Program-made: the position numbers and the translations under genes
The notes under the pieces: model-generated
The model's database searches: none
What the model saw: the letters and a program-made list of their open reading frames with translations, nothing else
What the model was told of the DNA's origin: nothing
Assembly: GCF_019059575.1 (NCBI RefSeq)
Contig: NW_024881961.1
Span: forward strand, 1 to 64,000
Length of the DNA: 64,000 nucleotides
Source: Amphibalanus amphitrite
Taxonomy: Eukaryota; Arthropoda; Thecostraca; Balanomorpha; Balanidae
Reading direction: 5' to 3'
Part shown: positions 6,501-57,073 of the stretch, piece by piece
How positions within the stretch are numbered: the stretch's first letter is position 1
Layout: each line of letters begins with the position of its first letter

Positions 6501-7186
6501 CCGAGAGCTACCTGAGCAGCATTGGAACGAGTAAGTAAGAAGGATATTCGTAATAGTATAGTGCTTTAGATCTTCCTTTTCGCTATATTTAAGTTATTCA
6601 GACGGCCTTTGATTCATTCATCACAATATCCTCTCGAACCGATTCTGTATTTTTGCTTGGCTTCGCTACAAGCAGAGTGCAAGACCATACAGTGTTTGTC
6701 TCTATTGCAGGCTATGGCTACCAGTGTTTGATCGTGACGGGGTCATTTTTTTCTATTGCAGCCTACGGCTACCAGTGCGTGCTGGTGACGGGGTTAATAT
6801 ATGTCTCTATTCCAGCCTACGGCCACAGTGTGACGGGGTGACGAGTATTTTCTGTCTTTATTCCAGCATACGGCTACCAGTCAGTGATAGTGACGGGCCC
6901 GGACGCGTGGACCATCTACTCTGGCGACAACTATACGGGCTACAGCGTGTGTCTGTACTCGGGCAGCGACAGCGCCGTCTCGCCCAGCGGACAGAAGATC
7001 ACCTTCGGCCTCTTCCCGACGGCCGACTACCTGGGCGTGGTGGGCTCCAACATCCGGTCGGCGCGCAAGGGATGCTACTCGGGGGTGACTCTGCGCGGCC
7101 AGCCGCTCACCGCCGAAAACCACATCTCCACTGTGGTGGAGGAGGACGCTGCGAGCGGAGGGGTCGGACGCGCCGGATCAAACTAG
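3583..7186 (+). CDS. Secreted beta/gamma-crystallin-fold protein, gene 1 (4 coding exons)
   Basis: Exons 3583-3770, 5954-6059, 6404-6530 and 6867-7186 join in phase (2, 0, 1) into about 246 aa. A signal peptide (MQPLTACLLVSAALAGASG) is followed by four Greek-key-like repeats. Each has an aromatic/glycine pattern: WLDGYSGQHQTG, FFEHDQFNYDAG, LYEGTYFSG and IYSGDNYTGYS. The domains end in SSIRRVG and SNIRSARKG, the usual end of a crystallin domain. Four cysteines outside the signal peptide are shared with the paralogues and probably form disulfides. Donors are GTGAGT, GTAAAC and GTAAGT. Intron 1 (2.2 kb) holds a piggyBac-like MITE and intron 3 holds acceptor echoes. Exons 1 and 4 are almost identical to gene 2. 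The role is unknown: secreted structural, calcium-binding or defence functions are all known for this fold. The fold call is firm; function is not inferred. Confidence 0.87.
4620..5651. mobile_element. TTAA-flanked piggyBac-like MITE (copy in gene 1 intron 1)
   Basis: About 1,032 bp, flanked by TTAA (4616-4619 and 5652-5655). Terminal inverted repeats are CCCTCGCCGG / CCGGCGAGGG. Just inside each end is a G-run/C-run palindrome. TTAA duplication plus CCC ends is the piggyBac signature. There is no coding capacity. The interior is rich in AGGTCA/TGACCT, including TCAAGGTCA at 4971-4979. It matches the copies at 13.3, 47.7 and 49.6 kb in order and motifs, for example 'gcgtcgaatgatatac' and 'gttattgacgaaaaac'. 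Confidence 0.85.
6711..6866 (+). repeat. Triple echo of the exon 4 acceptor, crystallin gene 1
   Basis: Three diverged copies of the exon 4 splice acceptor and first ~31 exon bases lie head to tail before the true exon. Exon-like starts are at 6711, 6762 and 6816, and the true exon starts at 6867 (steps 51, 54, 51 bp). Each copy has a pyrimidine tract, CAG, a CTAYGGCTACCAG-like block and GACGGG. In each echo GACGGG is followed by GT, where the true exon has CC. The frame 6653-6841 stays open through all three and then stops, so using any echo acceptor with read-through would truncate the protein. Confidence 0.85.
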
Positions 7187-7356
7187 GAGCAGACACCACC
7201 GGTCTCTGAGCTGTCGGTGTCTGTAGCTACCTAGCGTCGAGCGGGGCTGGCTTAGATTTGATAATTGATACCTATATTGTTTTTATAGAATACATTGTTA
7301 CGTTACGATGAAAGGTCGTTTGGATGCCGAAGCGACACGATACAACTGTTTGTCTT

Positions 7357-7362
7357 AATAAA
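7357..7362 (+). terminator. Polyadenylation signal, crystallin gene 1
   Basis: AATAAA 171 bp after the stop codon, on the coding strand. Confidence 0.65.
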
Positions 7363-7689
7363 TTCATGCGCATAGTCCGTCACCTTATTTTCCGGTGAAT
7401 CTACGGATTCTCATAAAGCTTGGGATTTTAGATCTGATTATTTTTGACGTCAGTGCGATTGCTTCTACACTGTGCAAGAGTAAGCTGGGTCATAAGACCT
7501 CTGCGGGACCGATTGAGCACTGATCGTAATTGGTGAACTAAGTCTTCCCGGCTGAAGGGGGCGAGTGCCAATCCCTCCAAACGTTTTCTCGCTATTATTC
7601 TAAAGGCGCTGGCCAGTGGCCATGGGAAAACTGAAAGGTGGCGAACCTGACCTCTTATCCAAGCCAGATCTTGTGACACCAGCTACGCT

Positions 7690-8438
7690 TTTAGGTCATG
7701 CCAGGTCACTGCGCGGCTGTATCTCGTTCCTGTAAGGAGTTATTGGCAAAAAATCGTTGGTGACCTTTAATGACGTCACATGACCTTACAGCTGGCCAAC
7801 AGCAAAACAGGCCTCAAAGTAGTGAAGGTTGATCGTATGTGAAGTCATGTATGGTATATGGGGCCATTCCGACGCACTTTAGTGGAAAAAACAGAGAGTT
7901 GCTTTTCCCCCATTGACTTATAATAGGGAGGTCGAGAAATTGACCTGACCTTAAGTCATCGATATCGAAATTCCGAGATAAACAAATTGTAGCTACCAAT
8001 GACCTTATAACATCCTGCGACTTTCAAAGGCCTCCGTCACCTACTGTAGCTCTGACACTGTGGAAAAGTTGCAAAAAAGTAACTTGAGGTTGGGTCATTC
8101 AAAGGGACCTGGTGACCTGACCTTAAAAGTTAAGATGTTCAAACTTGCACATCACGTGTAAAATTAATGAAAAAATAGTCATGCCAAATTTCCTGGCGCT
8201 ACGCGCCGCGGTTTTCCCGCTATTCATAGGCGGCGGAACGGGGAGGGCACCGGGGCACCGTGCCCCCCTTTAATTTTGGCATTTTAACATTAGCCCTATG
8301 GGCGTTGCATGGAAAGAATCGAACCGAAAGTCGGCAGTGCCCCCCCCCCTTAATTGAATGTGTTCCGCCGCTACTGCCGCTATTCACGAAAAACCTCAGG
8401 GGGGAGGATAACCGCCCCCCCCCCCGCCGGTGCGCGGG
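7690..8438. mobile_element. 5'-truncated piggyBac-like MITE with nested small MITE
   Basis: The right end (GCGCGGGTTAA with G/C-run hairpin, TTAA 8439-8442) and interior blocks match the 4.6 and 13.3 kb copies: ATTGGCAAAAAAT, TGACGTCA with TGACCTT, and CCCATTGACTTATAATAGGGAGGTC. No left TIR was found; similarity fades upstream of about 7690. A 151-bp element (8225-8375) is inserted near the right end. Confidence 0.7.
8225..8375 (+). mobile_element. ~150-bp MITE, copy 1, nested in piggyBac-like MITE
   Basis: Ends are AGGCGGCGGAAC / GTTCCGCCGCTA. The flanking direct repeats CCCGCTATT (8216-8224) and GCCGCTATT (8376-8384) match at 8 of 9 bases. The interior has GGCACC/GGTGCC-type arms and a C-run. 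An inverted copy lies at 10949-11097. The 8-9 bp duplication suggests a Mutator- or Merlin-type transposase; that assignment is inference. Confidence 0.8.
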
Positions 8439-9237
8439 TTAAGTCGACCTCTATAAAACGAAAAGTATAGCATTCAGCACGCTAAACCATAAAGAACATG
8501 ATGGTGCTACGATCGCGACTAATTATCCGCCAAAAACCGAACTCCTACCTTGGGCATCTGACTTGACCTCAGAGGTCACCGGCAGGTAGTAAAAGGATAC
8601 TGCCTAAAAATAAGAATTTGAAGCAGTTGAAAATTAAATTGTTCTTGACCAAATTTTCACTTGGCTGCACGCTTAAAATTGCTAAATATAAAGGATGCTT
8701 CACATAGAAGCTACTTTGGTAGGCTGTGTTGTCTAGTAGAAACGTAGGTACGCTATCTTATAAATTGTCTCAAATCCGACGTGTGAGTCTCGGTGATTAT
8801 TCGACAGTTATGGTTGGACGATTTCGGATTTGGCCTCGCAGCTATCGCGTCTTAAATCAACAACCTTTACAAAAATAAACGACAGACACAGTTATACCCA
8901 TACCAAAAAACATGGTTCGAAAACAACAGCGGACTATTTCTGGTGTATTTATTCATACTCTATCGATTTTCATAAGCCGGCTTTTCATAGCATGCATATA
9001 TTTGGCCCATAATTGCGTACGTAACAAGTAACAGCTACCAATAACGTCACATCAAGCATCTTGTCCACAAACTTTCACAATGACGTAAGGCAGATGCGCT
9101 GCCTGGGCGTCGCTGTCCGTTTAACCGAGCAAGCACTTCGTCTGACTACCGTCTTATTTCCGTTGGCTATTTTTCGTCGGTCGGTCGCCGTTTCGGTAGT
9201 GTCTCTCTGTAGACGCCGACTGCGCTCTGTTGTCGCT

Positions 9238-12200
9238 CTAGTTCTTCACGACGAGCCCGGCGTCACCGCGGCGGACGGTGACCGGCTGTGACTGGAGGCG
9301 GGTCGCTCCCTCCGCGCAGCCCTTCTGCACGGAGCGGATGTTACCGCCGACAACGCCCAGCTCCCAGGGCGTCCAGAAGACGCCGTACTCGATCTGCTCG
9401 TCACCCACCCAGACGTAGGTGCCGTACGACTCCAGGCAGACGCTGTCGCCCGTGTAGTCCTCACCCGAGTAGATGGTCCACGAGTCGGGGCCGGAGACCA
9501 TGACAGACTGGTAGCCGCTGGCTGCAGCAGAGACAGCAATGGTCCAGTCACTATCACAGACTAGCCGTAGGTTAGGCTGGAAGACAGGGGTAGCCGCTGG
9601 CTGGAACACAGCGGGACGGGAAGGGTGGGGTCTGGGGATAAGCTGCAGATGTCAGCTCACTGTCGGGTCTGTGGGCCGATGAACAGAAATGCGTCAACCC
9701 AGGAAGGGTCTGCGTGTATGCAAATATTGCGAAGTACAGTATGCGAATTGCAACAATGTTGGTGAAAGATATGTAGGGGAGTGGGAGAGCGTCCGTATCG
9801 GTTTAGAGATGTTGAGTTATTGTTCGTTTTAGTTTAGCTACCTTGGTTTGTTGAAATTGTACGCGTGGGATATTTAGGCAGGGGTCTGAAAGGAGGCAAG
9901 CGCGGCGGGAACCGCACGGGCACATCGGCCGCCATCTTTAGCCTCGAGGCGGCTGATGTGGGCGTGGCCTACTCGGGCCAGGGACGAGACGAAAGCAGGG
10001 GAGAGGAGATCGGGGCTCTTGGTGTCTGACGGCCGTCCGGTACGGACATCGAGCCCCCGACTGCTCTCTGCTGCTGGCTCACCTGGCTCGAGGTAGGTTC
10101 CTGTCACGCAGGGATTGATGCTGGGCTCAAAGCACATCCCATAGTTAGGATAGGAGCACCGGGGTGGAGGGTTAGGTAGATTCGCGCGCCGTAAACCGTT
10201 AGGGTAGTGATAGGGTAGAAATTTGCGAAATGCGGAAGGTGAATCGTCGTATCGAATATTGACTTACGCAGTCCTTTATATCGTTCGGCTTTTACAATAA
10301 ATGGGTTTAGAATTGACCAGATGCATTTGGAGACGGGTTGAGTCGGAGGAGAACGGAGGTTGAGCGGAGTCAGATTCACTCGGTACCTTAGTTAGTCATC
10401 ATGGCTCAGGAGCTTAGCTCCAAACCCACGAAGGGCGCGCTAAAAACCGCGTGTGCTCCAAAATGGCGGAGTTATTCACCTGAACCACGATGCATAGTTT
10501 AGTACATTTAGTTTAGAGGACAGTGGCCCGGGTGGCAGACGGGTAAAAGGCTGGGAGACGTCCCGGCTGATCACTGATCCTATAGAGTAGAGTAGAGATC
10601 CGGAGGGGAGGTAACGAAGGGCCTGCAGGACCGGCCTAAGCCCCCCTCACAGATAGAGCGTAGTAGGAACATGCGGGACGGAGCAATATGGTATGTAAGG
10701 GTAGGACTGCTACAATCTGTGGAGATATTGGATAAGGTGATGTATCTGTAGAAAAGTGACTGAGGTACGGAATGCATCCGATGATTGAGCTTTGAGACAC
10801 GTGTGACGGGATATGCACCTTGCGTGTCTGTGCGGCTGTAATAAATGAAAACAAAATATTGAGGGCCGATGAAAAAAAAAATCCTATCGTAGTCGTGCGC
10901 CTGGCACATGCCGGCCGTATAGTGCCTATAGTTTTTCCTATTCCGACCAGTAGCGGCGGAACACCTTCAAGGGGGGGGGGGGCACTGCCGACTTTTGGTC
11001 CCATTCTTTCCATGCAACGCCCATAGGGCTAATGTTAAAATGTCGAAATCAAAGGGGGGCACGGTGCCCCGGTGCCCTCCCCGTTCCGCCGCCTATGATT
11101 CCGACCGCTAAATGTCCATCAGAGGCAAGCACCTGAAGCGTGCTGTGCTACACTGCTCCATAGTTTCTATTCTATCTGCTAGCTGTCTTGAACAGTCGGA
11201 CGCCTGGCACATGCCGTGCCGCAGTGCTCAATATTTTTAATTTTAGCCGTTAAATGTCTTTAAGTTGGACGCCTGGCGCATGCTGTGCCGCAATACTCCA
11301 TTTAGTTTCTAATCCAGCCGCTAGATGTCTATCGTAGTCGGACGCCTGATGCATGCTGTGCCGCAGCGCCTTGTAGTTCCTATTCCAGTCGCAAGATGTC
11401 TATAGCAGTCTGGCGCCTGTCGCATGCTGTGCCGCAATGCTCCATAGTTTCTATTCCAGCCGCTAGATGTCTTTCGTAGTCGGACGCCTGGCGCATGCTG
11501 CGCCGCAATGCTCCATAGTTTCTATTCCAGTCGCTAGATGTCTATAGCAGTCGTACGCCTAGCGCATACTGTGCCGCAATACTCTATAGTTTCCATTCCA
11601 GCCGCTAGATATCTGTAACAGTCGTGCCGGTGCGCCTGATGCATGCTGTGCCGCATGTCTCGGCTGTTCCTGTTCCAGTCACCTCGTGTCCGGAGGTGCG
11701 CGCCACGCCGCATGCTACGCTGGGTGACCGCTGTTCAGTGAGTACGTTCTTTTGAAGCAGCTGATTCAGTGTTCCTTGCTGATTCAGAGTTTGACTTCAT
11801 TTTCGACACCCAGCTTTTTATTTTTGTTGGCTATAGGTATGTGTAGCTTAGTAGCTCAGAGGCTTACCAACATTGACAGAGATGTTTTGAACATCTCATA
11901 ACATTGTTCGCTCACAAGAAAGTAGAAACTATATATGCTTCACGGGCAAGCCTTGGTAGGTATGGCAGCTGATACCCGCTGAGACACCCCAGTGTGGTAG
12001 AACAATAAAATGGAGCTCTCAAACCAGCTGGGGACGGGCGCACACGGGTGTACTCAGCACGACAGCCCTCACCTGACACGGTGTTGGCAGAGTCGGCCTG
12101 CAGGAACGTCTCCTCGCCCGAGAAATACATGCGTGAGTAGAGGGTCAGCCCGCTGAGAGACGCGTCGGTCGGGTCACCGACGTAGCGCAGACTGGACACC

Positions 12201-12983
12201 TGGTGAGTGGTGAGCGACGGGGCACGAGGTCACTCAATTCGGCAGCGCAAAGTAATTAAATACAGCTGAGCAGTCTCATACTCAGTCAAGGCATAGGCAT
12301 TGAAACAGTGGCAGCTTACCTATCGTCTCGACGAACTCAACCACGGTGGAACTGATGAAACTTCGAAACGTGATGGCATTGCATAAAAGACATTAACTTT
12401 TATGTTTAATGTATACGGAACGCATAGAACAATCGGACTCCCTCTCGTACATACACAGAAAGGAGGAAACAGGCACCCACTTAGGTAATTGACACGTAAA
12501 TTCACATTAGCTGTCTTCATGCCTGGCTGGGCATTCCATTCCACCCAAAGTCCACTAACCTTGCCCTGCAGGTCTCCGTCGATATCCATACAGCCTCGGA
12601 TACCCAGCGTGAGGAGGACCGCTCCGCTCTGCGCATTGTACTGCTCGTTCTCGTACAGGATCCAACTGAAAGTGGGCCGTCAGTTAAACACATATCAGCC
12701 ATGTGATGTAGCTAATGTCTCATAAATTTTGCAGATTACCGGATAAAGGCAGCCCTCAATTAACGACGCAGGTTAATTTGTCACCGATTAATTACCAGCC
12801 CATGAGGCAGATGGATCCGACGCGGTTATCCAGCTCGCCCAGGCTGCTCTGGCTGCCGTAGTAAGTGACGCTGGTGCCCGTCTGCCCGGCACCCGTGTAC
12901 ACCAGAAGGGACGGGGGGACGGGCGTGCCGGCGCTGGCCGCCGCCGCGCCAGCCACGAGCAGCGTGAGAACTCCGAGACACAT
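9238..12983 (-). CDS. Secreted beta/gamma-crystallin-fold protein, gene 3 (4 coding exons)
   Basis: Minus-strand exons 12796-12983, 12560-12665, 12073-12199 and 9238-9521 join to about 234 aa. Exon lengths 188, 106 and 127 and their phases equal those of gene 1. Signal peptide MCLGVLTLLVAGAAAASAG. Greek-key segments: LVYTGAGQTGTSV, LYENEQYNAQSG, LYSRMYFSGEE and IYSGEDYTGDSV. Domain ends are SSLRYVG and GNIRSVQKGC. This is the most diverged of the three; exon 2 has CMDIDGDLQGK where genes 1 and 2 have CFTFKADFDQQ-type sequence. It converges on gene 1 and diverges head to head from gene 2. Intron 3 is 2.5 kb and carries a 71-bp minisatellite, a MITE and an acceptor echo. Confidence 0.85.
9522..9612 (-). 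repeat. Echo of the exon 4 acceptor, crystallin gene 3
   Basis: On the minus strand the true acceptor CTGCAG/CCAGCGGCTACCAG is preceded by two copies. One is TTCCAG/CCAGCGGCTACCCC ending near 9601. The other is TTCCAG/CCTAACCTACGGCTAG followed by TCTGTGATAGTGACTGG. The second resembles the exon of genes 1 and 2 more than its own exon, so the echo is older than or independent of the divergence of gene 3. Confidence 0.7.
10890..11720. repeat. 71-bp minisatellite in gene 3 intron 3
   Basis: About ten diverged units with consensus blocks 'gacgcctggcgcatgctgtg', 'ccgcaatgctccatagtttc' and 'tattccagccgctagatgtc'. The CTAGATGTC block recurs at about 11321, 11392, 11463, 11534 and 11605, i.e. every 71 bp. 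The first part of the array is split by the MITE at 10949-11097. No open frame runs through the units. Confidence 0.9.
10949..11097 (-). mobile_element. ~150-bp MITE, copy 2, inserted in the 71-bp minisatellite
   Basis: Inverted copy of the 8225-8375 element. It is flanked by a perfect 9-bp duplication ATTCCGACC (10940-10948 and 11098-11106), which is itself part of a minisatellite unit. This fixes the element borders and shows a 9-bp target duplication. Confidence 0.87.
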
Positions 12984-13035
12984 GTCGGCAGGGACTGAGG
13001 AGCTCCTGAGCGCACCGCACCGAGCGACCGGCGCC

Positions 13036-13041
13036 TTTATA
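13036..13041 (-). promoter_or_regulatory. TATA box of crystallin gene 3
   Basis: TATAAA on the minus strand (in GTGTATAAAGGCGCC), 53 bp before the ATG at 12983. A second CCTTTATAG-type site lies about 35 bp further upstream. Spacing matches genes 1 and 2. Confidence 0.65.
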
Positions 13042-13322
13042 CACTCACAGGCGCGCTGACATCGACACGTGCCTTTATAGATAGACACGCAGGCTCATAG
13101 TGTACGTTTACCTATGCCCATAGCATAGGTCTTACCTATATCTATACGCCATATGTAATATGCATAATGCATATTGATATATACGTATGAATATCTACAT
13201 ACACAGACACCTATATCGGTATTCAGACGTACATCTACACAGACATACAGACTTTAACAGGCCGACACAGTAGCACGCTCCGTACCCACATTAGGCTCGA
13301 CAGGGACACAAGTGTGTTTTAA

Positions 13323-14492
13323 CCCGCGCCCGGCTGGGGGTCTTGAATTTCCACGCCCTGCTGGGGGGGGGGGGGGGGTGTTTGAACACCCCCCCCCCTT
13401 GTAACTCGGCTCCTGGGCCACGTAGCGATACGCGGAAGGCGGCGTTCGAAAGAGCGTCAAATATAATGACGAAATCCCTTCGGTTAATTTTTTGGTCAGG
13501 TCAAAGGTCAGGTCACCAGAGGTCATTGAAGGCAGAATTTCGCCAATTTCCAGGTCGAATGTCCACAATTTCCAAGAAGCCAACGCATAACTCGAGAACC
13601 AATAGAGCTACAACGCTGCGGAAAAACGCATTCGATAGCCCTATTAAAGCCCTTTCTGAGTAATTCTCTCAGATTTGACCTAACGTCAACGGTTTTGCCT
13701 GCAGGGGGCAAAAACTGCAAAAATAGCCGATTTTTTTCGGAAACAGTTTTTCTGCAATAACTTTTGACCCAAGCATTGTACGAGCTTACTTTTACCGGCA
13801 TTGTGTTCCTCTCGTCAAGACGCATCGAATGAACTATAAGTTGACCTTGAAAGGTCAACTGGAAAATTTGACCTCAGGTCAAGGTCATGACCTGACCGGA
13901 AAGGGTCATGTTGCATATCAGTCGATCCGTATCGTCGAGCTGAACACATCTAAGGCGTTTTCATCGCTCTAGCATGCCTCTATCAAAAGTTATTTGCGAA
14001 AAACTGTTAGATACCATTCGTGACCTAAGATGACCTCAGGGCATAAACAAGGGTCACTGACACCATTTTCATGTTCAGTGTGTCTAAACCACTTGTAATT
14101 CGGTGTTTGGGAGTGTTTATAATGTCTTATGTCCAAAAGAGGCGCATTTCAATTTTCTCCCATTGACTTATAATGGGGAGGTCGCAAAATTGACCTGACC
14201 TCAGGTCATCGATATCAAAATTCTGAGATATACATTTTGTACATGCTATTGCTCTTAGCAATCGCTGAAAGTTTCAAAGCGATCGGTCACTCGGTGTAGC
14301 TATGACAGACATTGAAACTTTTTATGAGGTGAGGTCACTTCAAGTGACCTGGTGACCTGACCTTGAATGACCTTGGTCTGAAGTTTTCACAACATGTGTA
14401 GAATTGATGTATGATAAGGTGTACCAAAAACGGATTCGCGAAAAACCACAAGGGGGGGGGGGGTGTTCAAACACCCCCCAGCAGGGCGCGGG
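13323..14492. mobile_element. TTAA-flanked piggyBac-like MITE between crystallin genes 3 and 2
   Basis: 1,170 bp with TTAA at 13319-13322 and 14493-14496, and TIRs CCCGCGCCC / GGGCGCGGG. Subterminal palindromes are G-run, TGTTTGAACA, C-run (left) and G-run, TGTTCAAACA, C-run (right). By eye it holds about twenty AGGTCA/TGACCT hexamers. These include a DR1 (AGGTCA-A-AGGTCA) at 13498-13510 and TCAAGGTCA at 13879-13887. No coding capacity. It lies 280 bp upstream of the gene 3 TATA box and 350 bp upstream of the gene 2 TATA box. Confidence 0.9.
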
Positions 14493-14846
14493 TTAAGACA
14501 GTTCTGATAACTGAGCATATTGTGCTTGGGCCCAATATTCTACATAGATGTCAATTGTCAAACACGCGTGTAAAACACAATTCGCATGCCATGCAACGCA
14601 ATACCTCATACCAAGCCCCTATACTATCGGTCACATTACCTATTTTGCACAGCTGTGCTCTGCGCACTTCCTTACACAGCAGGTGACATCAGACTCCTGT
14701 ACATCTGCGCAACTATCTACGAATTTCGGTGACAAAGCGCCCGTTTTTCGTATGAAGCATCCGATGCATCGCAGAGCGGCGGCCGGTTCCCGGAGCACAG
14801 CTGGTCTGGTCCCAGCCCTCTCACAGGGGCCGCTCGGAGGGACAGC

Positions 14847-14853
14847 TATATAG
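14847..14853 (+). promoter_or_regulatory. TATA box of crystallin gene 2
   Basis: GCTATATAG, 54 bp before the ATG, identical in core to the box of gene 1. Confidence 0.7.
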
Positions 14854-14900
14854 ACGCACTAGCAACACCCCGCTGCAGACCATACTGTAGTGTCCCAGCC

Positions 14901-16869
14901 ATGTTCCACCTATTGCTGACGGCGGCGGCGGCGGCGGCGGCCGGAGGGGCGGCCCGACCCAGCGGAGTGAGGCAGTGGCTGGACGGCTACAGTGGCCAGC
15001 ATCAGACGGGCAGCCTCATCACATACCACGACAGCGCCAGCAGCCTCGGCGGCTGGAACGACATCATGCGCTCCGCCTGCATCAACGGATTGTGAGTCAG
15101 CCCCTCTGAGAGGCTCTTAGCCTCTTACCAGTCGTTTTGCTGAGCTGGGCGTCTGTAATTTTAACGGACTGACAGTTGACACATCTTTGCATTTAAAGAT
15201 GTTGAACTAACTTGAACTAAATGCTCGTAATCGTTAGCCGTTCCGAATATTCAATGTCGATAAATATCGTAGAGTTGGAATGCCAATGTAGTGCACATTA
15301 GATGTATATGAGTTTTAGCTATCAAACGCTCTTACTATGTACGACATCAAAATGAAACGTTGCTTGCGATGCATTTTCACATTTCAATATTTTCGAGCGA
15401 AAGTAACCACTAACTTTCATTTTATCAAAGATCGAGTTTCCCGAGCTTAATTGGGATCGAAGCGGCGTGAGCTCTGACCGTGACGTATGGGACCGGGATG
15501 AATTGAAGTTTTAAACGCCGACATGTTTATTGCAGCTGGGTGTTTTACGAGCACGATCAGTTCAACTACGAGTCTGGCAAGGTGCTGTGGGCATACGGTT
15601 TCAACTATTGCTTCACCTTCCGGGAAGATATGGATAAACAGGTGAGATGCCCTTAACTAAACGCACTAAACGCGTCTAAAATTAGACGCATGTGTCAGCT
15701 GTCATGTTATGCATTCGATTATGCTGAAGTTCTACATTTCTTTTTTATATTCACAACGTCGTCACCTACGACGCCTAAAAAAGTCAAAAGTCGTGACAGT
15801 GTGCGCAGTGCGTTTGCATTAACCGTTCACCGTCCAACCCGCGCAGACCGTACACAGACCATAGGTCAGTCGAGTGTGCGGTCCCGGCGTCCACCGTCTA
15901 TCCTGCACGATAGACCGTCTATCCTTCACGATAGACCGTCTTTCCTGTATGAAAGACCGTCTTTCCTGCAGCACATGCGCTGGCTGACCGTGACCCCTGA
16001 CCACATGTCTCGAGTGTGCAGTCTCCGCGTCCCCGTCTATCCTGCAGCACTTGTGACTGACCGTAACCTCTGACCACAGGTCTCCAGTGTGCGGCCGGTC
16101 GGACACCCAGTAGACGCCGCTGCCGACTCCCTCACACTGTTCGAGGGCACGCTCTTCTCGGGCAGTCAAGTGTTCATCGACGCGTCCGCTTATAACGTCT
16201 CCACAGGTCGGTAGCTGGTGCTATAGGCGCTAGCTTACTGTGAGAGAGGCCGTGAAGTAACTGAACACGGTCCTTCATTATACTTGACGAATGACGATAG
16301 AATGGATAGTTTGGATTCGTATATGAAAACTATTGACTCTGTCTCAAACTTAAGTGTACCAGCTCTCAGCTACGTGTCCGTTTCAATTTCATTCGTTTGT
16401 GTCCATTTAGGTCAGTTTCTTCATTTGTCTCCATTGCAGCCTACGGTTACCAGTCTGTGATAGTGACGGGGTAATTTCTGCCTCTATTACACCCTATGGT
16501 TGCCAGTCAGTGATATTAACGGGTGCTACTTCTGTCTCTGTTTTAGCGTACGGCTACCAGTCAGTGATAGTGACGGGCCCGGACGCGTGGACCATCTACT
16601 CTGGCGACAACTATACGGGCTACAGCGTGTGTCTGTACTCGGGCAGCGACAGCGCCGTCTCGCCCAGCGGACAGAAGATCACCTACGGCCTCTTCCCGAC
16701 GGCCGACTACCTGGGCGTGGTGGGCTCCGACATCCGGTCGGCGCGCAAGGGATGCTACTCGGGGGTGACTCTGCGCGGCCAGCCGCTCACCGCCGAAAAC
16801 CACATCTCCACTGTGGTGGAAGAGGAATGGGAAAAGGCTTTGGACAACGGCTTCGCCTTCGAACCATGA
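14901..16869 (+). CDS. Secreted beta/gamma-crystallin-fold protein, gene 2 (4 coding exons)
   Basis: Exons 14901-15091, 15536-15641, 16080-16206 and 16547-16869 join to about 248 aa. The signal peptide (MFHLLLTAAAAAAAGGAA) contains a GGC/GCG triplet run, so its alanine tract may vary in length. From WLDGYSGQ to the end of exon 1, and through most of exon 4, the sequence is almost identical to gene 1. Exons 2 and 3 differ clearly (WVFYEHDQFNYESGKVLW; VSSVRPVGHPVDAAADSLTLF). The C-termini differ after STVVEE. Crystallin Greek-key motifs and four cysteines are as in gene 1. Introns 2 and 3 carry acceptor echoes. Shares a roughly 1.9 kb divergent upstream region with gene 3, most of it MITE. Confidence 0.87.
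15845..16079 (+). repeat. Echoes of the exon 3 acceptor, crystallin gene 2
   Basis: The end of intron 2 and start of exon 3 (ACCGTAACCTCTGACCACAG then GTCTCCAGTGTGCGG) recurs upstream. One copy is CCTGACCACATGTCTCGAGTG at about 15997-16017. Another is CAGACCATAGGTCAGTCGAGTG at about 15855-15876. Steps are about 73 and 142 bp. The middle copy has CAT in place of CAG, so it has lost the acceptor. Between the outer two lies a short inverted repeat built from GATAGACCGTCTATCCT-like units (15895-15968). Confidence 0.75.
16440..16546 (+). repeat. Double echo of the exon 4 acceptor, crystallin gene 2
   Basis: Two copies precede exon 4 (start 16547), at 16440 and 16493, steps 53 and 54 bp. The first keeps a good acceptor (CTCCATTGCAG) and ends GACGGG/GTAATT, a plausible donor that would define a 31-nt, frame-shifting microexon. 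The second has AC instead of AG at the acceptor and is probably dead. Confidence 0.83.
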
Positions 16870-17926: not shown

Positions 17927-17932
17927 TTTATT
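17927..17932 (-). terminator. Polyadenylation signal, PIBF1 homologue
   Basis: AATAAA on the minus strand about 730 bp beyond the PIBF1 stop codon. The intervening AT-rich sequence (17933-18663) is taken as 3' UTR. Confidence 0.5.
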
Positions 17933-18663
17933 CGCAGCTTTTATATTGTTACAAAACAATAAGTGAAAAACAGTATTGACCACAAACATTTCGTTATATT
18001 CGTACCAAATCTTTGTACTTGGATCACGCATGTGGAAGCAGGTGACAAAACACACGGACACAAAAATACTTTGGCATCGGCTGGCTGAGAGTCGCAAGAT
18101 TCAGTTCCGGGGTCTTGTCCATTCTACATACAAAGGGCCCACACATAGCAGCACAGCGCTCGACCTAGAGAGCTAAATTCGGTTGGGAGTTCAACGGTCG
18201 TTTACCAAGGACAGGTACTTGGCAGTTGGCACTGTGATATTTCACAGGAATCTGGCTGACAAAAAATGAGACCCCCCGAAAAGACGCATCGAAACTAAAA
18301 TAAAAATATGACTGAAAATGTTAAGGGGAATATCGCGAGAACAAAATACCGTCATGGAAAAGGAGGGGCAAACACTTCGGAAGGAATGACAGCAGCAAGC
18401 TAACCTGATAAAACGATGAGTGATACAAGAATATGTTATGAGGCAATGCCTAGCATACCACACACGGGTGGAAAATGGATGCCTTTGATTTACAGCATCC
18501 GCGAGACAAAATAAAGATGAAACATGAGATATATCACAAACATCACATTATAACTTAAAAAGTACAAAAAACTACTTCTTACGAGTGCTACATAAATATT
18601 ACCTTAATAACGAGTACAAACACTGAGCACTTGGCAGTGTTTTTTTTTTTACGTTGTAGTCGA

Positions 18664-21600
18664 CTAGGGAGTAGTATGGTTGGAGTCTTCTGCGTGACTC
18701 CCAGAGTCAGACTCGAGCAGTGGAGTCACCAGCAGTTTCAAGGCGTTGAGATCATCCTCTTGACGAAGCAAAACATCAATATCTGTGAGCCAAATGCCTG
18801 TACTGTAACGCTCTGCAGGCCGGGATTGGTTCACAAATACAACTGCCCGGCGTCCAGCATCCACCAATTATGCTCGTTAGTCAGGTCAGTTTATAGCTGA
18901 ATTCTAGCCTCGACTTTCAGCTCAAACCAACCCTTCCTTCCAACCGAACTCGACAATTGCAGCATTTTGCTGATCGCAAGCGCCGTACGTTTCGATCGTC
19001 TCGTGTGCTATATTCGCAGACGCTGTCAGTGTAAACGGTCACCCAAACGGTCACCGCGCGCCCCGCCCCCGTCTGCCGTCACTGACCTTTGACCAGCCGG
19101 TCCCGCTGCCGGGTCACGGTGGCCAGCTGGCGGCGCAGCAGCTGCAGCCGCTCCGTCAGCTGCCGGCTGTCGGCCTGCAGCCGCTCGATGGTGTCCTCGT
19201 ACTGGCGCCAGCGGTCGGCAGCCCCCGCCCCGCCGCCGCCGCCGCCGCCGCCCAGCAGAGGCTGCAGACGCGACATCTGCACAGCGGGACGGACGGGCCG
19301 CAGACGTCACATTCTATTCACCGTTAGAATAATCGTTTGGTGTCTGGATGCTATTCGTCAGAGGCACGCATCTTTCAAATACAAAAGTAACCTCACAGTG
19401 GATTAAAAGGCACAGTGTCCCAAAATTATGTTTTGGCTTGGGTGTCGGAGGGGAATATTCGTCACTACAAAGAGGGCTGAGAGTGAAAAATGCCAGTCAG
19501 AAAGGCACAAAAAGAGCGGAAAACAGGGGTCAACAATTTATTTGTTAATGTTATAGGATGTCGGAGCTGCCTTATAAGATAATTAAATCGAATATGGAGG
19601 GAAATGAAAGATACGTACAGCCACACGCAGATGCTCTTTATTGGTAAAATAGGGAGTGAAAAATTGCTCTTAGAAATCAGAGATGAGAGTGGAATATTAT
19701 TGTGATTTGGATGTCACTTCCCACCCAAACTGGCGAGTTTTGGGACACTGAAAAGGCAGCATGTAAACGACCTTACCAACCGAATCATAAGGTGTACCTA
19801 AATAGACTCAGCATACCCAGGGTCTGGTCGTGGTAAAGGTTCAGCAGGCTAGTTAGGGAGGGGGGGGGGGACGGCCTTTCACCGCGCTGGTGGCTCACCT
19901 GCTGCTGGAGTCGCTCGGCCCGCTCCGTCTGCTGCCGCAGCTGGTGGGAGGGGGGAAGGGCTCACCTGCTGCTGGAGTCGCTCGGCCCGCTCCGTCTGCT
20001 GCCGCAGCTGGTGGGAGGGGGGGGGGGGGGCTCGGCGCGCAGGTGACTCACCTGCTGCTGCAGTCGCTCGGCCCGCTCCGTCTGCTGCCGCAGCTGGCCC
20101 CTCAGACGGGCCGCTGCAGACTCAGAGTCGACCAGTCGGCGGCCCAGCTGCAGCGAGTACTGGAGCCGGCGCCGGCAGCCGGCAGGCAGCGGCGGACCCG
20201 ACTCGAGCAGCTCCGCACAGCCGTCACCGCCTGCAAACACACGGTCGCACACGGCGGATATTCAGGTAAGCGGGAGTGAATCTATTCCGATGAGTAAGCA
20301 ATATGGCAAAATCTGTAAACCACCTAGCTCCAGCACTGAACGCGGAACACGTGCTGCATTGAATCCTTCTCTCGACCACAGCCCGGACGTACCCTCCGCG
20401 GCCTGAGCGATGAACGTGCCCCAGCTCTTCTCGAATGCCTCGTAGGCCTGTAGCTGCTGTCGGCACTCGGTCAGCTCCCGTTCCAGTCGGCTCCGCTCCG
20501 AGTCCGTCTCCGTCTGCCGCTGCAGCAGCGCCGCGTCCCGCTGCTGCGGGTAACGGGAGACGGACGGGGGTCAGTGGAGGGGTACGCAGAGGGAAGGGGG
20601 AAGGTCCGGTGGAGGTCACAAGACGAAGGAGTCACTGAAAGCAACCGATTTAAATGCGGATATCATTCGAGGTGTTGGCCACTAAATGTGCAATTATTCA
20701 TCAAATGAGTCTACAATGGATTACGATCGACTGCTTTGGATATTGGATACCACAGACACGACTACCATAGCATAAGATAAGAGGCAAACCAAGAAGCGCT
20801 TGTAGCCTGAAAGTATCGGTACACACCGACCAGCTGTCTGAGCGTCCCTGCCCACCTGCAGCTGTGCGCTGAGCGTCTTGTTCTCCTCCCTGAGCGTCTC
20901 GGCCGCGCGCACCGCCTCCGTGGCAGTCACGTCGTACCGCTCCGTCTCATACTCGGCGATCTGGAGACGCGCAGACAGCTCAGCCAGCCGGGCCCGCTCG
21001 GAGGATAGCTCAGACTCGAGCCTGCCGAGTACACCACAGAGGCCGTTAGGATAGAGTGTGGGGAATAATAACTGCAGCAAGACAGAGCCATGCCGCCCGA
21101 GAGAAAACACCGACACAGAGCTGAGGATTCATTTTCAAAGTAATTGATCGATTAGCCAGACTGCATATCTCCGACGAACGTCGGCCCAACATGAGCAGAT
21201 GATACTGGTTTTACCTTTAATAAGTAAGGATGAACCACCCCTTCCACAACCACCACGCAGCCAACAGGTCATTCACCCACCTCTCGACGCTCTGCTGGGC
21301 GGCCTCCCGCGCCTGCTGCTCCCGCTCCAGACTGCGGGCGTGCTCTGCGCGCAGCTCGGCCGTCTCTGCGGCGCGCTCGGCCAGCAGCTGCGCGCGCAGC
21401 TCAGCAACCTGCTGCTGGTGCTGGGCGCGCGCCGAGTCGCGCAGCGCCGCGTACTGGCGGCGCGCGGCCAGCTCGGCCTCCACCAGCTGCTCGGCGCGCA
21501 CCCGCTGCCGAGCCGCCTCCTCCTCGGCCTCTGTGCAGCGAGCGGCCGCCTCCGCCAGTCGGCGGGCCGCCTCCAGCTGCTCAGACTCCAGCGACGCCAC

Positions 21601-23860
21601 CCTGTCGAGAGAGGACGGACGCAGACAGCAACAGTCGTGAGTCGGGTCAGAGCACGAAAAGACGCCACGCCAGTTCTGTCAGAGCAAAAAGAGACGCCAT
21701 ACTTGACAGGCTGAACACGGGGGATGCAAAACCAGTACGGAAACAGCACGACTGCCGAGCTCCACTGATATCAACAAACGTCGGCATGTAAATTCGCCTT
21801 GAGCCCCCTCACCTGTCTCTAACGACCTTCAGCTGAGCCTCCGCCTCACCAGCTGCCTCCAGCTTCTGAGTGGTCTCGGCCAGCCGCGTCAGCGCCGCCT
21901 CCCGGTCCGCCTCGGCGCGGGACAGGCGCGCGGACAGCTCGTCACGAACGGCCCGCGGCAGCGCCGACTCGCGCAGCCGCTGGTGTGCCTCGGAGAGCTG
22001 TCGCAGCGCCGCCAGCTGCTCCTGCTGGGCGCGCTCCGCCTGCTGGCGCGTCTCGGCCAGCTCCGCACGCGTCGTTGCCAGCTGCGGACGGGCCGACTCG
22101 AGCTCGGCAGCCAGCTCCGCGCGCTCTGCCTCCAGCTGACGGCAGCGGGACTCGAGCGGCACCACGGCCTCGTGGAGACGCAGCTAGAGACGGAAGCGAT
22201 GCAAGTAGTCGGACATCGCAACATAACAGATACAGGCACCACCAAGTCTGATCACACGGGTTTCGAACGTTTTCGAACGGGCGCGTTTTCGGGAACGTAC
22301 TTCGAATCGAAAGCCTTTTCGGATTACGAGTAGGACTTATATATTACTAACTCAACTAAGAAAAGGCGGAAACACATTTCAGGAATACCTACATTGAAAA
22401 GTTCATATAACCCACTTTTTCGTTTTCACATTGCTCAAGCTTTTTGGTATTCCCTTAGGCAAAGAGCAAGGGGCTTGTATAATGTCGGATGGCCAAGACC
22501 ATACGAGTCATGAGCGTGATGTAAAACCTGGCGGACATCGCCTTCGGGCCCGTGGACAAGCCAACGCTTCGCAAATCACACCCCATTCCCAGGGAACAGC
22601 CACTCACCGCAGCGAAGTCTTTGACGGACATTGCCTCCGTGTCCATGTCGGCGAGCTCTCGGTAGCGCGCCTCGTTGATGGTCAGGTGGAGCAGCGAGCG
22701 CTTCAGCTGGTCGGGCGTCACCTGCAGGCGGCTGTTGTCCTCCTCCAGCTGCCGCTGACGGGCCAGTAGCTGGTCTAGCTGCTGACGCAGCGACACGACC
22801 TCGGCCTCGTACTGACCCAGCTGGCCTGTCTGCCTGTCGGATAGCAGCGGAATAACAGCGGCACACACAGCGGGGAAAGTAACACACGATACCTCGGCCT
22901 CGTACTGGCCCAGCTGGCCAGTCTGCCTGTGATACAACAGCAGGAGTCGTGACGGCCTGGATAATAAATCTCAAACATAGAAAACATCAAAACAAGTTCA
23001 GTTCACAAGGCAAGAAGGGTGTTCAACTGACTTGACAATAGAGCCGTATTTAGGTCTCATGGTCCCAACAGCTGCATACACACTCACCTGATCTGGAGCA
23101 TGTTCCTCTGGTGTTGTGCCTCGGCCAGCTGGTCCTCGAGCTCGTCCACCCGACTCTGCTGCTCCCTGCGCTCCACCTGACAGCGGCCGGACAGACGCCG
23201 TTAGTCAGAGAAGATCAGCAGGGCAAAACCAGTCAGACTGGCAGAGCCAGATACAGCCAGTGAGCCACGATCCGCCGGACAGCGCCCGAGAGGCATCGCC
23301 AGACAGGACAAAACAGATGCCTTCACCATTTGGTCAACAGATACTGTCATGCAGACAATCAGGCAAGCAAAGCCAGACGGGCATAGCCAGACTCAGGCAA
23401 GTAAAAACGATGAACCCGTCATCTTATCGATGAAGATGAATGAAATATTTGGATAATGTTAGTATCACCTTCGGGAGTTCGGAGCTGTCCCGATTCCGTT
23501 TTTTCGAGCACCGGCACGTAGGAAGGTACCCAGTACCCACCATTTCGCCAATGAATGCCGACGGGTAGCCGGTAGGTGCCCACCATCTCGTCACTGAGAG
23601 CCGGGACGGCGCGAGCCGCGTACACCCACCTGTCGCTGGTGTGTCAGCTCGGCCAGCTCCACCCGCAGCAGCTGCAGCTCGTGCATGAGCCGGGCGCGGT
23701 GGGCGGTGGCGGCGGCGGCGGCCGAGGGCGAGCCGCGCTCCCGGCCGCCGCCCTCCGAGGACACCGTCAGGTCGGTGGGCACCGTCGAGTCGTCGGCGGT
23801 GCGGTGCGGCGCCGACTCGGACGTGGTGGTGGTGGTGGTGATACATCCCGCGTCGGACAT
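18664..23860 (-). CDS. PIBF1: Progesterone-induced-blocking factor 1 / CEP90 homologue (10 coding exons)
   Basis: Minus-strand exons 23630-23860, 23088-23176, 22608-22833, 21813-22183, 21281-21601, 20856-21021, 20393-20543, 20052-20230, 19087-19276 and 18664-18782 join in phase to about 680 aa (vertebrate protein ~757). It is almost wholly coiled coil. Landmarks shared with vertebrate PIBF1 run in order: TVPTDLTVSSE and LMHELQLLRVELAEL near the N-terminus; VDELEDQLAEAQHQRNMLQ; RQRQLEEDNSRLQ; YAALRDSARAQHQQQVAEL; LQAYEAFEKSWGTFIAQAAE; CRRRLQYSLQLGRRLVDSES; and LLRQEDDLNALKLLV at the C-terminus. The family acts at centriolar satellites and distal appendages in ciliogenesis. Arthropod copies are less studied. 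Exon 9 has a polyglycine run from a GCC repeat. Introns hold exon echoes and a hAT-like MITE. The start codon is the first in-frame ATG matching the family N-terminus. Confidence 0.85.
19413..19750. mobile_element. hAT-like MITE in PIBF1 intron 8
   Basis: 338 bp with ends CAGTGTCCCAAAA / TTTTGGGACACTG and a perfect 8-bp duplication AAAAGGCA (19405-19412 and 19751-19758). No coding capacity. An 8-bp target duplication and CAG-type tips fit hAT. Confidence 0.9.
19899..20007 (-). repeat. Two 42-nt echoes of the PIBF1 exon 8 end with splice sites
   Basis: The last 42 nt of exon 8 (20052-20093, encoding LRQQTERAERLQQQ) recur at 19966-20007 and 19899-19940. Each echo is preceded by a C-rich tract ending CAG and followed by GTGAG. 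Each is exactly 14 codons, two coiled-coil heptads. The two echoes match each other and differ from the true exon by one base (CTCCAG against CTGCAG). The gap between echoes is only 25 nt, too short for a normal intron; the gap to the true exon is 44 nt. Confidence 0.85.
22893..22926 (-). repeat. Echo of the PIBF1 exon 3 acceptor and first 34 nt
   Basis: GCAGACTGGCCAGCTGG onward, preceded by CACAG and followed by GTATCG, lies 93 bp upstream of the true exon 3 start (22833) in the sense direction. It matches the exon through CAGTACGAGGCCGAG with three substitutions. As a 34-nt microexon it would shift the frame. Confidence 0.82.
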
Positions 23861-23889
23861 GGCGGGGAAGTGCTTCCACCTCCGGCCCC

Positions 23890-25100: not shown

Positions 25101-25130
25101 GGCACTGATCAGGAGTTATTTATCTATCAG

Positions 25131-25136
25131 TTTATT
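25131..25136 (-). terminator. Polyadenylation signal, CTH
   Basis: AATAAA on the minus strand, about 310 bp past the CTH stop. A second, weaker AT-rich site is adjacent. Confidence 0.55.
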
Positions 25137-25444
25137 TGAAAAACACGCACGTCCAAACCAATGCATTGACAAAAGTACTAATGCCTTTTGCAGGCTGTTA
25201 CAGCACCCCCAAATGACTCTCCGCATACGAGAGGTATACGTCGACCACTAAACATCTCCCGAGTAGGTACTCCTCGGTTGCAACACTGTACAGTACAGAT
25301 CACCAGTGTGCTGTTGATGTTGAACCGGTAAATACCTTCGCAACCTCGCCCCTACGACCTGTCAGACCACCTCCACTCAGTCACTGCACTGTCCGGTGTG
25401 ACACCCCTCCACTCGGTCACACAGCTCATGGCGTGGCGGCTTCT

Positions 25445-28400
25445 TCACTCGGCCACACCAGCCGAGCCGCCGTTCCCCGCGGCGGCGCTGGTCGAGCCGC
25501 CGCCCTCCGAGCGCTCGGCACAGGCGGCCCGCAGCGCCTGGTCCAGGTCGGCGCAGAGGTCAGACGGACTCTCGAGGCCGATCGACAGACGCACCATGGC
25601 TCCGGTGATGTTGAGACTGTCCAGCTCCTCCTTCGAGTTCCGCACATGCGTCGAGAACGTGCTGAAAATGATCGACAGCGCGAGTCAGACCTTAGGTACG
25701 GAAAACCGAGTCCGACTGCAAAGGACATTTCTCCGTCATTCAGAAAGATATACCGTTCTAACTAATAATGCATTCTAGTCATGTTATACTTTTCACTTCC
25801 ATTTGTACTTATACCCTTATGTTCGTCAATTTGGTATTGGGTCGCCTATTTATAGCGACAGGCCAGAAATAGCGCTCAAAAGATCGCCATCTCTAAAGAT
25901 ATCTAAGAACATAAGCATTTTTGCTGGTTCGGAGGCTTATTTAGACCGACCCGAGAGATCCATACATCTCGTGGCTCTAGAAGTCAATCGAATATAAATA
26001 TTAGTTACTCTGCACGATACGAAACTATCTTTTTATGCGTAACGAGTCAGCGTGATGACCTGCAAGGCCGAGGTTTGAGGCTGCTGACTAGGCCTGAGGC
26101 TGCTACTCACGGTCCCACGGCCAGACTCTCGTAGCCCCCCAGGCTGCCGGCCATGGTGAACAGCTTCAGCTGGCGGAAAAACTCCATGGCCTCGGGCCGA
26201 CCGCCACGAATGTAGAAGCTCAGCATACCGCTGCACCCGTAGGCCTGCCGCTTCACCAGCTCGTGCTGACGACACAATCATCCATCATGTCATGAAACAC
26301 TTTTGGTAGGTTTGTATTCACCAGCTCATGCTGACGGTCGAACGTACAGAGTGGGCTCTGCGACTGTCATCTATGGCAAGACGGCCAACTGTCGTTTTTA
26401 GTAGCATCGGCCGTAGTAGATTGTCTACCTGGTTATAGTTCCATTTTGCTTTTGAAAAAGGCTGTTGGAACTGTCTTTTTTACCTTTTTAACTTTAACTC
26501 GTGCATGAGGTAAATAAATACCTATCGGAATAATGCACCGTCAAATGCCTAAGATAATCGCAAGTATATAATTTATAAAAAAGCAGATCTCGATGTGATG
26601 TCGATGTTACTCTTCACACCGTACCTCATGGGCACAGCAACTTATACATAAGACACAGACTTGTGCTTTCTCAGGCAGTCAGCCTATATAATCATATCTG
26701 TCATACCTGCGGGTGGGACTCGAGGCCGGGGTAGAGCACCCTCTCCACGTGCGGATGGTCCTCGAGGAACTTGGCCACGTGCAGTGCGCCACGCATGTGA
26801 TGCGGCATGCGCACGTGCAGGGTGCGCATACCGCGGAAGGCCATGTAGCAGTCGAACGGGCCCGGCACCATGCCGGAATCTGGGACGTTGTAAAGACAAT
26901 AGAGCGTTAGGAGGTCCTCGGTGGGCTAAATTGCCGGAATGTCCCATAAACGGTCGATTTATTATGTAAACAGAGGCGTCTCAAATAGCAGCATCCCAAC
27001 GATACTTGCTATGCAAAATAATTTCTGCGATTTGCCCATCATAAAAAATTAGATTCCGGTGAACCACGAGAAGACTTAAATATATGACGACTGCTGACTA
27101 CGACTCCCTCCTCACGGCTGCCGGCCAGCAGACCGTGGAACAGGCCCTCCTTCCCCCCGGCCCCCACCAGCCGATCCTTCCCCACCGGTCCCACTTGCCC
27201 CTCTCACCGATTTGAATAAGATCTCTCACCGATCTGTATGAGATCTCTCACCGATCTGAATGAGCTTCAGCCGTTCGTAGAGGTCCTCTCTGTTGGTGGC
27301 CACAGCGCCCATCACCACGTCAGAGTGACCGTTCAGATACTTTGTGATCGACTCGATCACAATGTCGATGCCAAAGTTCAGCGGACGCTGTAAAAGGAAC
27401 ACTTATATCTACGAGAAACGTATTGCCATAATAGTTAGGTTACATTACTCATTAAATTGTTTTGATTTTGGCTTCTACATTTATATTTGGTGGGAACCTA
27501 ACAACATATGCCTCTGTTTGAGCCGAGTTATAACGCGTACACAATCACCAAACGAATAACTTGGCCGATGACTTTAATTACAGATTATCGACAGTGTATA
27601 ACATCGAAACAATAATAGGTCACAAGATAGTGAATGCGCAAAATAACTCAATAAAAATGTTGAAAACGCGATATTGTACTGAAAGACTCCAATAGGTAAG
27701 CAAACTTAAAGGGCTTATCTGCCGCTAGGGTGTTTTAGACCGCCGCTAAAGGCGTTGCTGGTTTAAACGGTTCATTTACGCCTCCGATTAGTGATGTCAG
27801 TTACAGAAAATCGGGATACCGATACCAAACCAAATACCAATAATAACCATAGGAAAATACCAAAACTAAACCAACTTCAGAAACTGAGGGAAATACCAAC
27901 TTTTTACCGAATTCACAACCTCTTTTACATTAGCGACGATTCACAATACCAACAAAATACCAAATGCATTAGCCTTAAAATCCAAATACCAAGTTGGTAT
28001 CGGTTTGGTATCGGTATACCAAAAAGTTGGTATCCGATTGACATCTCTACCTCCGACCCAAACCATCCACGATGAATATTCTACATAAAGCATGAGGTAT
28101 ATCAGTCGAGGAGGGGACAGCCCAGAGCGAGAGACGGACCAGCCGACAGACCTGGAAGTAGGGCGACATGAAGGTGTTGTCACAGACGGTGATGATGCCC
28201 GGGTGTCGGCGGCAGACGGCCACCACCGCCTCCAGGTCAGCGATCTTCATCGTCGGGTTCGACGGCGTCTCCAGGTAAACCATCTGACGGTGACGGTGAC
28301 GGTAATGGTGGTGATAATGGTGATGATGGTGATGGATGATAATGCTATTTGCGTTTTGTTAGCTGGCTACAATTACGGTGTCAATCCGTCTCTCCGTCCG

Positions 28401-56492: not shown

Positions 56493-57073
<581 letters not shown>

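What the first reader, a model, noticed from the sequence alone, without database searches (positions are those of the whole stretch)
6711..27251. Splice-junction echoes: tandem copies of exon edges with their splice sites at eight junctions in five genes
At eight exon edges the short segment spanning the splice site and 14-42 exon bases is repeated in the adjacent intron. The sites are crystallin exon 4 in all three paralogues, crystallin-2 exon 3, PIBF1 exons 3 (acceptor) and 8 (donor), and CTH exons 5 (donor) and 7 (acceptor). Units step by 22 to 142 bp. Copies have diverged, so they are not assembly stutter, and most keep AG or GT. A recurrent process seems to duplicate splice junctions: replication slippage anchored there, repair from spliced products, or selection for decoy sites. 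I know of tandem NAGNAG acceptors and exon duplication, but not of a genome-wide echo habit like this.
Basis: partly seen in the sequence, partly recalled or inferred. Interest (0 to 1): 0.87.

Follow-up and report, generated by a model that had tools for sequence, protein, structure and literature searches.

The report
Duplicated exon edges in barnacle introns
In the barnacle genes examined, short stretches spanning the border between exon and intron are often copied into the neighbouring intron; the copies are real and differ between the two parental chromosomes, and most look like leftovers of ordinary local duplication rather than working parts.

Summary
The eight echoes are real. Of 48 modelled splice junctions, 8 have a nearby intronic copy (score >=17, shuffle z 7-26); crystallin exon 4 is one shared event, leaving about six. 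On the other haplotype's contig of this diploid barnacle assembly seven sites again have echoes and crystallin-2's is differently decayed, so assembly error is largely excluded. Copy number differs at CTH, and crystallin-1's first echo lacks its AG there. Local duplications are common (4 loci per 10 kb). Yet 6 of 40 edges of homology-chosen kinase exons carry echoes, against 3.1-3.8% of arbitrary points (P 0.001-0.004). Against an excess: predicted exon edges elsewhere gave 2 of 64, and displaced probes in the kinase introns were not significantly rarer (P 0.32). Echo-exon differences are mainly synonymous (13:2 outside crystallins). Best reading: local duplication across exon-intron borders, a known kind, unusually frequent here, the exon anchoring the copies. 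Of 14 echo sites tested as splice sites, 13 give early stops; PIBF1 exon 8 copies could be in-frame cassettes. Decoy selection is unsupported, not excluded.

The parts
6695..6897 (+). crystallin-1 exon 4 acceptor array: echo acceptors with exon-like starts at 6711, 6762, 6816; true exon start 6867
   Evidence: other haplotype
9510..9611 (-). crystallin-2 exon 4 acceptor echoes (exon-like starts 9600 and 9576; true start 9521)
   Evidence: other haplotype
15843..16093 (+). crystallin-3 exon 3 acceptor echoes (offsets 73 and 213; true start 16080) with an internal 21-bp tandem repeat
   Evidence: nearer copy on the other haplotype
16419..16577 (+). crystallin-3 exon 4 acceptor array, two echoes (16440; the second has AC instead of AG); true start 16547
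   Evidence: other haplotype
19856..20097 (-). PIBF1 exon 8 donor array: exon ends 20052; two 42-nt in-frame copies at 20007-19966 and 19940-19899, each between CAG and GTGAGC
   Evidence: other haplotype
22793..22941 (-). PIBF1 exon 3 acceptor echo (exon-like start 22926; true start 22833; +93 nt, open in frame)
   Evidence: other haplotype
26252..26336 (-). CTH exon 7 acceptor echo (true start 26265, echo 26330, 19/20 identical)
   Evidence: other haplotype
27201..27264 (-). CTH exon 5 donor, three 22-bp copies (true donor after 27252; echo donors after 27230 and 27208)
   Evidence: one copy fewer on the other haplotype

Best explanation
The echoes are short local (mostly tandem) duplications of about 20-95 bp that happened to straddle an exon-intron border. 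Shown: such duplications are common in the sampled genome; seven sites have echoes on both haplotypes, and copy number and spacer length differ between these. Shown: the exon edges compared are conserved. Inferred: the echoes are older than the haplotype split; the copy joined to the exon is held by selection while outer copies become intron; and exchange (gene conversion or unequal exchange) with that fixed exon keeps the outer copies recognisable. That would explain both the excess of visible echoes at junctions and the mainly synonymous echo-exon differences. Most echoes would then be by-products without function; PIBF1 exon 8 may have gained usable in-frame cassettes.
For: Background: 81 loci in 200 kb of arbitrarily placed stretches, 4.05 per 10 kb, 8.4% of bases. 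Other haplotype. Extra donor copies 2 v. 1 at CTH exon 5; PIBF1 exon 8 spacers differ in length, and copy 1 on the other haplotype carries the same two haplotype-specific synonymous changes as its exon; cry1 on the other haplotype carries the last array unit of the window's cry3. Between haplotypes seven echo copies (201 sites) differ by 11.9%, 13 synonymous and 11 nonsynonymous; five exon edges (171 sites) by 3.5%, 6 and 0. Echo-exon differences outside crystallins 13 synonymous: 2 nonsynonymous, P 0.0002; all 27:10, P 0.00005. Junction excess: window 8 of 48, kinase 6 of 40, arbitrary points 423 of 11,060. Simulated survivorship, averaged by me over ages from the table, gives about 1.1-1.4 fold.
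Against: Exchange between exon and echo is seen directly only at PIBF1 exon 8 (two sites), by eye, and between cry1 and cry3. PIBF1 exon 3, CTH exon 7 and cry2 exon 4 show no full-period homology, so simple tandem duplication is not shown there. Counted by codon, all echoes including cry1 give 17:12, only P 0.05. For the most diverged copies (0.30 per copy) survivorship alone favours junctions 3-7 fold. A junction excess needs no explanation if the 2 of 64 predicted edges or the non-significant displaced control (P 0.32) reflect the truth.
Confidence: 0.6

Rival explanations
1. A mutational process is directed to splice junctions (for example transcription-linked breaks with end-joining or templated repair), so duplications arise there more often than elsewhere.
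For: Placement test in the window: 6 of 12 loci span a junction, 1.6 expected, P 0.003; within genes 6 of 11, 2.1 expected, P 0.009. 6 of 40 kinase edges v. 3.1-3.8% of arbitrary points, P 0.0013-0.0039; with the uncertain L035 donor dropped, 5 of 40, P 0.007-0.018. Survivorship in simulation is small except for old copies. In Daphnia, staggered breaks are proposed to leave direct repeats in new introns (PMC4202315, passages).
Against: Predicted exon edges elsewhere 2 of 64. Displaced probes in the kinase introns 25 of 225, not significantly fewer. The window was singled out after the fact.
Confidence: 0.2
2. The copies are used or selected: decoy or backup splice sites, or small alternative exons.
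For: Four cry echo acceptors outscore all 24 authentic acceptors in a matrix built from this window (the authentic ones scored leave-one-out, which favours the echoes a little). PIBF1 exon 8 copies are 42-nt open cassettes with good sites, open by eye on the other haplotype too, exactly two heptads long. PIBF1 exon 3 echo use is open (+93 nt; chance about 0.63 x 1/3). Synonymous bias.
Against: cry1 e1 lost its AG on the other haplotype. 13 of 14 echo sites tested as simple alternatives give a stop before the normal end. AG/GT is missing in 2 of 15 copies. No RNA data. In the window the two PIBF1 copies could not both be cassettes, the intron between them being 25 nt.
Confidence: 0.12
3. Assembly artefact: fragments of the second haplotype or read errors inserted beside exons.
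For: Many kinase matches come in near-identical pairs on different contigs; the related barnacle B. improvisus is hyperdiverse (PMC8270832, passages); false haplotype duplications occur in such assemblies (PMC9516828, passages). Synonymous-only differences at PIBF1 and CTH resemble allelic ones.
Against: Seven sites have echoes on both haplotype contigs, and cry2's is there in decayed form; no N in the window.
Confidence: 0.02
4. Coincidence in a repeat-rich genome: junctions are hit at the background rate and this window and the kinase sample are lucky.
For: High background, 2 of 64 predicted edges, strong variation between stretches, 0 to 15% of points.
Against: Two samples, one picked without looking for echoes, at 8 of 48 and 6 of 40.
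Confidence: 0.06

Closest known systems
Tandem genomic duplication crossing an intron-exon boundary (potato RdRp intron gain, PMC4974935)
   Same: A duplicated segment contains the 3' end of an intron and the 5' end of the next exon with its splice signals.
   Different: [quoted passage not shown] here the outer copies lie inside an existing intron, no splicing is shown, and donors as well as acceptors are involved.
Internal gene duplication (Gao and Lynch 2009; paper not held; known here from citations in PMC3443670 and PMC4974935 and from recall)
   Same: Short duplications inside genes that include exon and intron parts.
   Different: Here 14 of the 88 junctions examined (8 of 48 and 6 of 40), with copy-number change between haplotypes at one site and a synonymous bias.
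Internal direct repeats in young Daphnia introns (PMC4202315)
   Same: Crustacean introns with direct repeats; repeats of exon ends in the intron occur (33 cases).
   Different: Daphnia exon-end repeats are 4-12 bp at the opposite end of a new intron; here longer, next to the same exon edge, in introns of unknown age.
Minisatellite (VNTR)
   Same: Tandem units, copy number differing between haplotypes at CTH exon 5.
   Different: One unit is anchored in a conserved coding exon.

Membership tests
Tandem duplication crossing an exon-intron boundary | Duplicated unit contains both intron and exon bases of one junction | tested here: met
   Matched blocks with both sides at the eight sites; 7 of 8 best blocks pass the strict spanning test, CTH exon 5 failing it (its best block has 7 exon bases)
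Tandem duplication crossing an exon-intron boundary | Copies adjacent over a full period | tested here: inconclusive
   Met for cry1/cry3 exon 4, PIBF1 exon 8, CTH exon 5 and the nearer cry3 exon 3 copy; not shown for PIBF1 exon 3, CTH exon 7, cry2 exon 4
Tandem duplication crossing an exon-intron boundary | New intron or exon is spliced | not testable with these tools
   No RNA data; only in-frame potential at PIBF1
Minisatellite (VNTR) | Copy number varies between haplotypes | tested here: inconclusive
   Met at CTH exon 5 (3 v. 2 copies); PIBF1 exon 8 and cry3 exon 4 have equal numbers
Duplicated whole exon | Complete exon copied | tested here: not met
   Copies in the window hold 7-57 exon bases in the alignments
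NAGNAG tandem acceptors | Acceptors 3 nt apart | tested here: not met
   Offsets of the echo copies are 22-213 bp
False haplotype duplication in the assembly | Copy exists only through mis-assembly of the other allele | tested here: not met
   Echoes at seven sites on both haplotype contigs, cry2's in decayed form
Introner-like dispersed intron element | Same element in unrelated genes | tested here: not met
   Only within this window: echoes match their own exon; 5 of 48 own scores exceed all 960 cross scores and 8 exceed the 99th percentile

The most novel reading that the evidence does not exclude
In this barnacle roughly one splice junction in seven carries intronic copies of itself, because duplications touching an exon are continually re-homogenised by the constrained exon (or arise preferentially there); junctions thereby act as seeds for intron growth and for in-frame micro-exons such as the two-heptad PIBF1 cassettes.
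Probability: 0.3. Interest if true: 0.8.

Novelty: new variant of a known kind. Interest (0 to 1): 0.6.

Why it matters
If the rate holds across annotated genes, exon edges are a major, measurable source of new intron sequence and candidate splice sites, and a diploid, hyperdiverse species lets duplication, exchange and loss be compared between haplotypes. It also warns annotators: gene finders can take echo sites for exon edges (my own finder did so at PIBF1 exons 3 and 8).

Tried and rejected
Blast self-comparison timed out and was replaced by a diagonal scan. Rfam gave nothing. Protein searches found barnacle crystallins, but for PIBF1 only two hagfish records among the 8000 candidates scored and nothing for the exon 8 region, so use of the cassette could not be checked. 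Weaker candidates (PIBF1 exon 3 donor, exon 2 acceptor, exon 6 acceptor; scores 13-14.5) are within the top 1-5% of cross pairings and were not counted; the L040 donor (score 16) missed the threshold and was not counted. Dropped before the kinase count: 3 of the 10 exons predicted in L032-L034 (6 edges, 1 echo, at the 449-nt L032 exon), because they overlapped no kinase match and did not look like kinase. Of the 20 exons kept, 18 overlap PF00069 matches (in L032 and L033) were kept because their translations look like kinase (by eye). The 14 loci were hand-picked from the 140 matches for being split by introns. Haplotype mis-assembly was my leading rival after and was dropped. Intron-wide controls in the window (9.7%; 5.3%) are inflated by the echo arrays themselves. 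The start of the last CTH exon was one base off until, so the scans used it so, and the CTH frames are replaced by those. Literature searches on duplicated splice junctions; no title in the listings was a genome-wide survey of such echoes, but the listings are short and most subscription papers are not held.
Full report
What the window is. The window is contig C464:1-64000 of an 807,550,619-base assembly in 2644 contigs. Its crystallin-1 matches an Amphibalanus amphitrite protein at 97%. The allelic contig C341 is 635,009 bases long, the same length as the contig listed for that NCBI record, LOC122389072, so I infer that this is A. amphitrite. Many kinase matches come in near-identical pairs on different contigs, which I read as an uncollapsed diploid assembly. 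CTH exons 5/6 and 6/7 join without a gap against a solved cystathionine gamma-lyase, so the authentic donor and acceptor at the two CTH echoes are right.

The observation. Against 960 pairings of junctions with other introns, 8 of 48 exceed the 99th percentile and 5 exceed all. A census of 1700-29400 at score >=16 found 19 local duplications: 8 span a junction, 3 are exonic, 8 lie elsewhere, 2 of these simple repeats. Placing 12 loci at random (crystallin exon 4 counted once, the 3 exonic and 2 simple loci left out) gives 6 reaching into an exon against 1.6 expected, P 0.003; within genes 6 of 11 against 2.1, P 0.009; with all 14 loci 8 against 1.9, P 0.0005. These figures are after the fact: the window was picked for this feature.

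Are they real? Yes. On C341 (L029-L031) I aligned or read each site: CTH exons 5 and 7, PIBF1 exons 3 and 8 and crystallin-3 exons 3 and 4, crystallin-1 exon 4, crystallin-2 exon 4. Seven sites have echoes there; of the two crystallin-3 exon-3 copies only the nearer one was recognised. Crystallin-2's remains survive with a 5-base insertion and a 6-base loss. CTH exon 5 has one extra donor copy on C341 against two in the window. PIBF1 exon 8 has two 42-nt copies on both, with spacers of different length; the PIBF1 exon 3 echo lacks one G at its acceptor on C341. On C341 crystallin-1's first echo has lost its AG, its other echoes are much altered, and its last unit and exon start read like the window's crystallin-3, which indicates exchange between these paralogues; exon 4 of the two is 94% identical in the window against 67-87% for exons 1-3.

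Do they do anything? Of 14 echo sites tried as simple alternatives (8 crystallin acceptors, PIBF1 exon 3, two PIBF1 exon 8 donors, CTH +22, +44 and -65), 13 give a stop before the normal end. PIBF1 exon 3 from its echo adds 93 open nucleotides, which chance allows in about one case in five. Each PIBF1 exon 8 copy is 42 nt between good sites (acceptor rank 0.79, donor rank 0.88 among authentic ones) and would add LRQQTERAERLQQQ, two heptads; the segment runs from CAG codon to CAG codon, so the frame is kept. No RNA could be examined. The highest-scoring echo acceptor is destroyed on the other haplotype, which speaks against decoy selection.

How common elsewhere? Twenty arbitrarily placed stretches (200 kb) hold 81 local duplication loci, 4.05 per 10 kb, 8.4% of bases. 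Of 11,060 points in them 3.82% score >=17 and 3.07% also span the point. A simple exon finder trained on this window (15 of 19 internal exons overlapped, 26 of 38 edges exact) gave 64 edges in 224 kb, 2 with echoes (2 of 78 at a looser threshold): no excess, though these exons are unverified. Kinase exons were then picked by homology from the table. Of 40 edges (20 exons in 14 loci) 6 carry echoes, all spanning the junction; one (the L035 donor) has an uncertain edge. P is 0.0013-0.0039 against arbitrary points, or 0.007-0.018 without that donor. Two are striking: an AMPK-like acceptor copied 52 bp upstream (L033) and a kinase donor with at least five further copies, by eye (L034) (the name AMPK is from recall). 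Against this stands the displaced-probe control: 25 of 225 probes moved 100-300 bp into the kinase introns also hit (Fisher P 0.32), 17 of them beside echo-bearing edges; beside echo-free edges 8 of 188 hit. In the window 21 of 336 displaced probes hit (P 0.018), 17 of 280 beside echo-free edges.

Why at junctions? In simulation, detection at junctions is favoured about 1.1-1.4 fold averaged over ages (my average of the table), but 3-7 fold for copies 0.30 diverged. Outside the crystallins, echo and exon differ by 13 synonymous and 2 nonsynonymous changes, against 40% synonymous expected for a free echo beside a constrained exon (P 0.0002; kinase alone 6:2, P 0.04; all 27:10, P 0.00005). An earlier count by codon, without the kinases, gave 7:0 for PIBF1 and CTH (P 0.002) but 17:12 with all crystallin copies (P 0.05). 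Between haplotypes seven echo copies differ at 11.9% of sites, 13 synonymous to 11 nonsynonymous, five exon edges at 3.5%, 6 to 0. Echoes therefore change fast yet stay close to their exon, as expected if the exon re-seeds them; at PIBF1 exon 8 copy 1 on C341 shares two haplotype-specific changes with its exon. Alignment ends were chosen for similarity and the frames by hand, so these tests are indicative only.

Relation to the literature. A tandem duplication crossing an intron-exon boundary made a new intron in potato (PMC4974935, abstract and passages); internal gene duplications are called commonly observed there, citing Gao and Lynch 2009. Tandem genomic duplication is a listed route of intron gain (PMC3443670, passages), is invoked for some Drosophila introns (PMC2891723, passages), and direct repeats mark 55 of 90 young Daphnia introns and 100 of 617 established ones (PMC4202315, passages). 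Coding diversity in the barnacle B. improvisus is extreme (PMC8270832, passages). I found no survey of junction echoes in the searches named in Tried and rejected.

Noticed in passing
L033 (C970), exon 3156-3286, minus strand; L034 (C921), exon 4081-4303, plus strand: Junction echoes outside the window: an AMPK-like acceptor copied 52 bp upstream, and a kinase donor with at least five further copies in the intron.
   Followed up: partly
L041, L044, L035: Further kinase exons with junction echoes (scores 38, 35, 40). L035 has copies at both ends of one exon and might be a tandem exon duplication.
   Followed up: partly
6867-7186, 16547-16869 and L031:4386-4718: Crystallin-1 and crystallin-3 appear to exchange exon 4 and part of its intron array; on the other haplotype crystallin-1 exon 4 is cry3-like in its first part but keeps a cry1-like end.
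   Followed up: partly
3583-16869: NCBI isoform X2 of LOC122389072 (P0001) reads as crystallin-1 exons 1-3 joined to the crystallin-3 last exon; FJT64_022189 (P0002) lacks the start of exon 4. Shared last exon or misannotation near the echoes is undecided.
   Followed up: no
56586-57073 and 63436-63923: Two 488-bp direct repeats, 100% identical, flank what looks like a Gypsy-type retrotransposon (named by eye): a recent insertion.
   Followed up: no
11100-11678: A 71-bp minisatellite in the crystallin-2 intron shares the 12-mer TCTATTCCAGCC with the crystallin acceptor echoes (shuffle P 0.002).
   Followed up: no
13300-14500, copy at 47739-48597; L029:2894-4089 and 4868-5910: Dispersed repeats with long G and C runs; on the other haplotype copies related to 13317-14496 and 4615-5656 lie between CTH and PIBF1.
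   Followed up: no
29360-35636: One CTH coding exon expected in this 6.3-kb intron was not found by motif search.
   Followed up: partly
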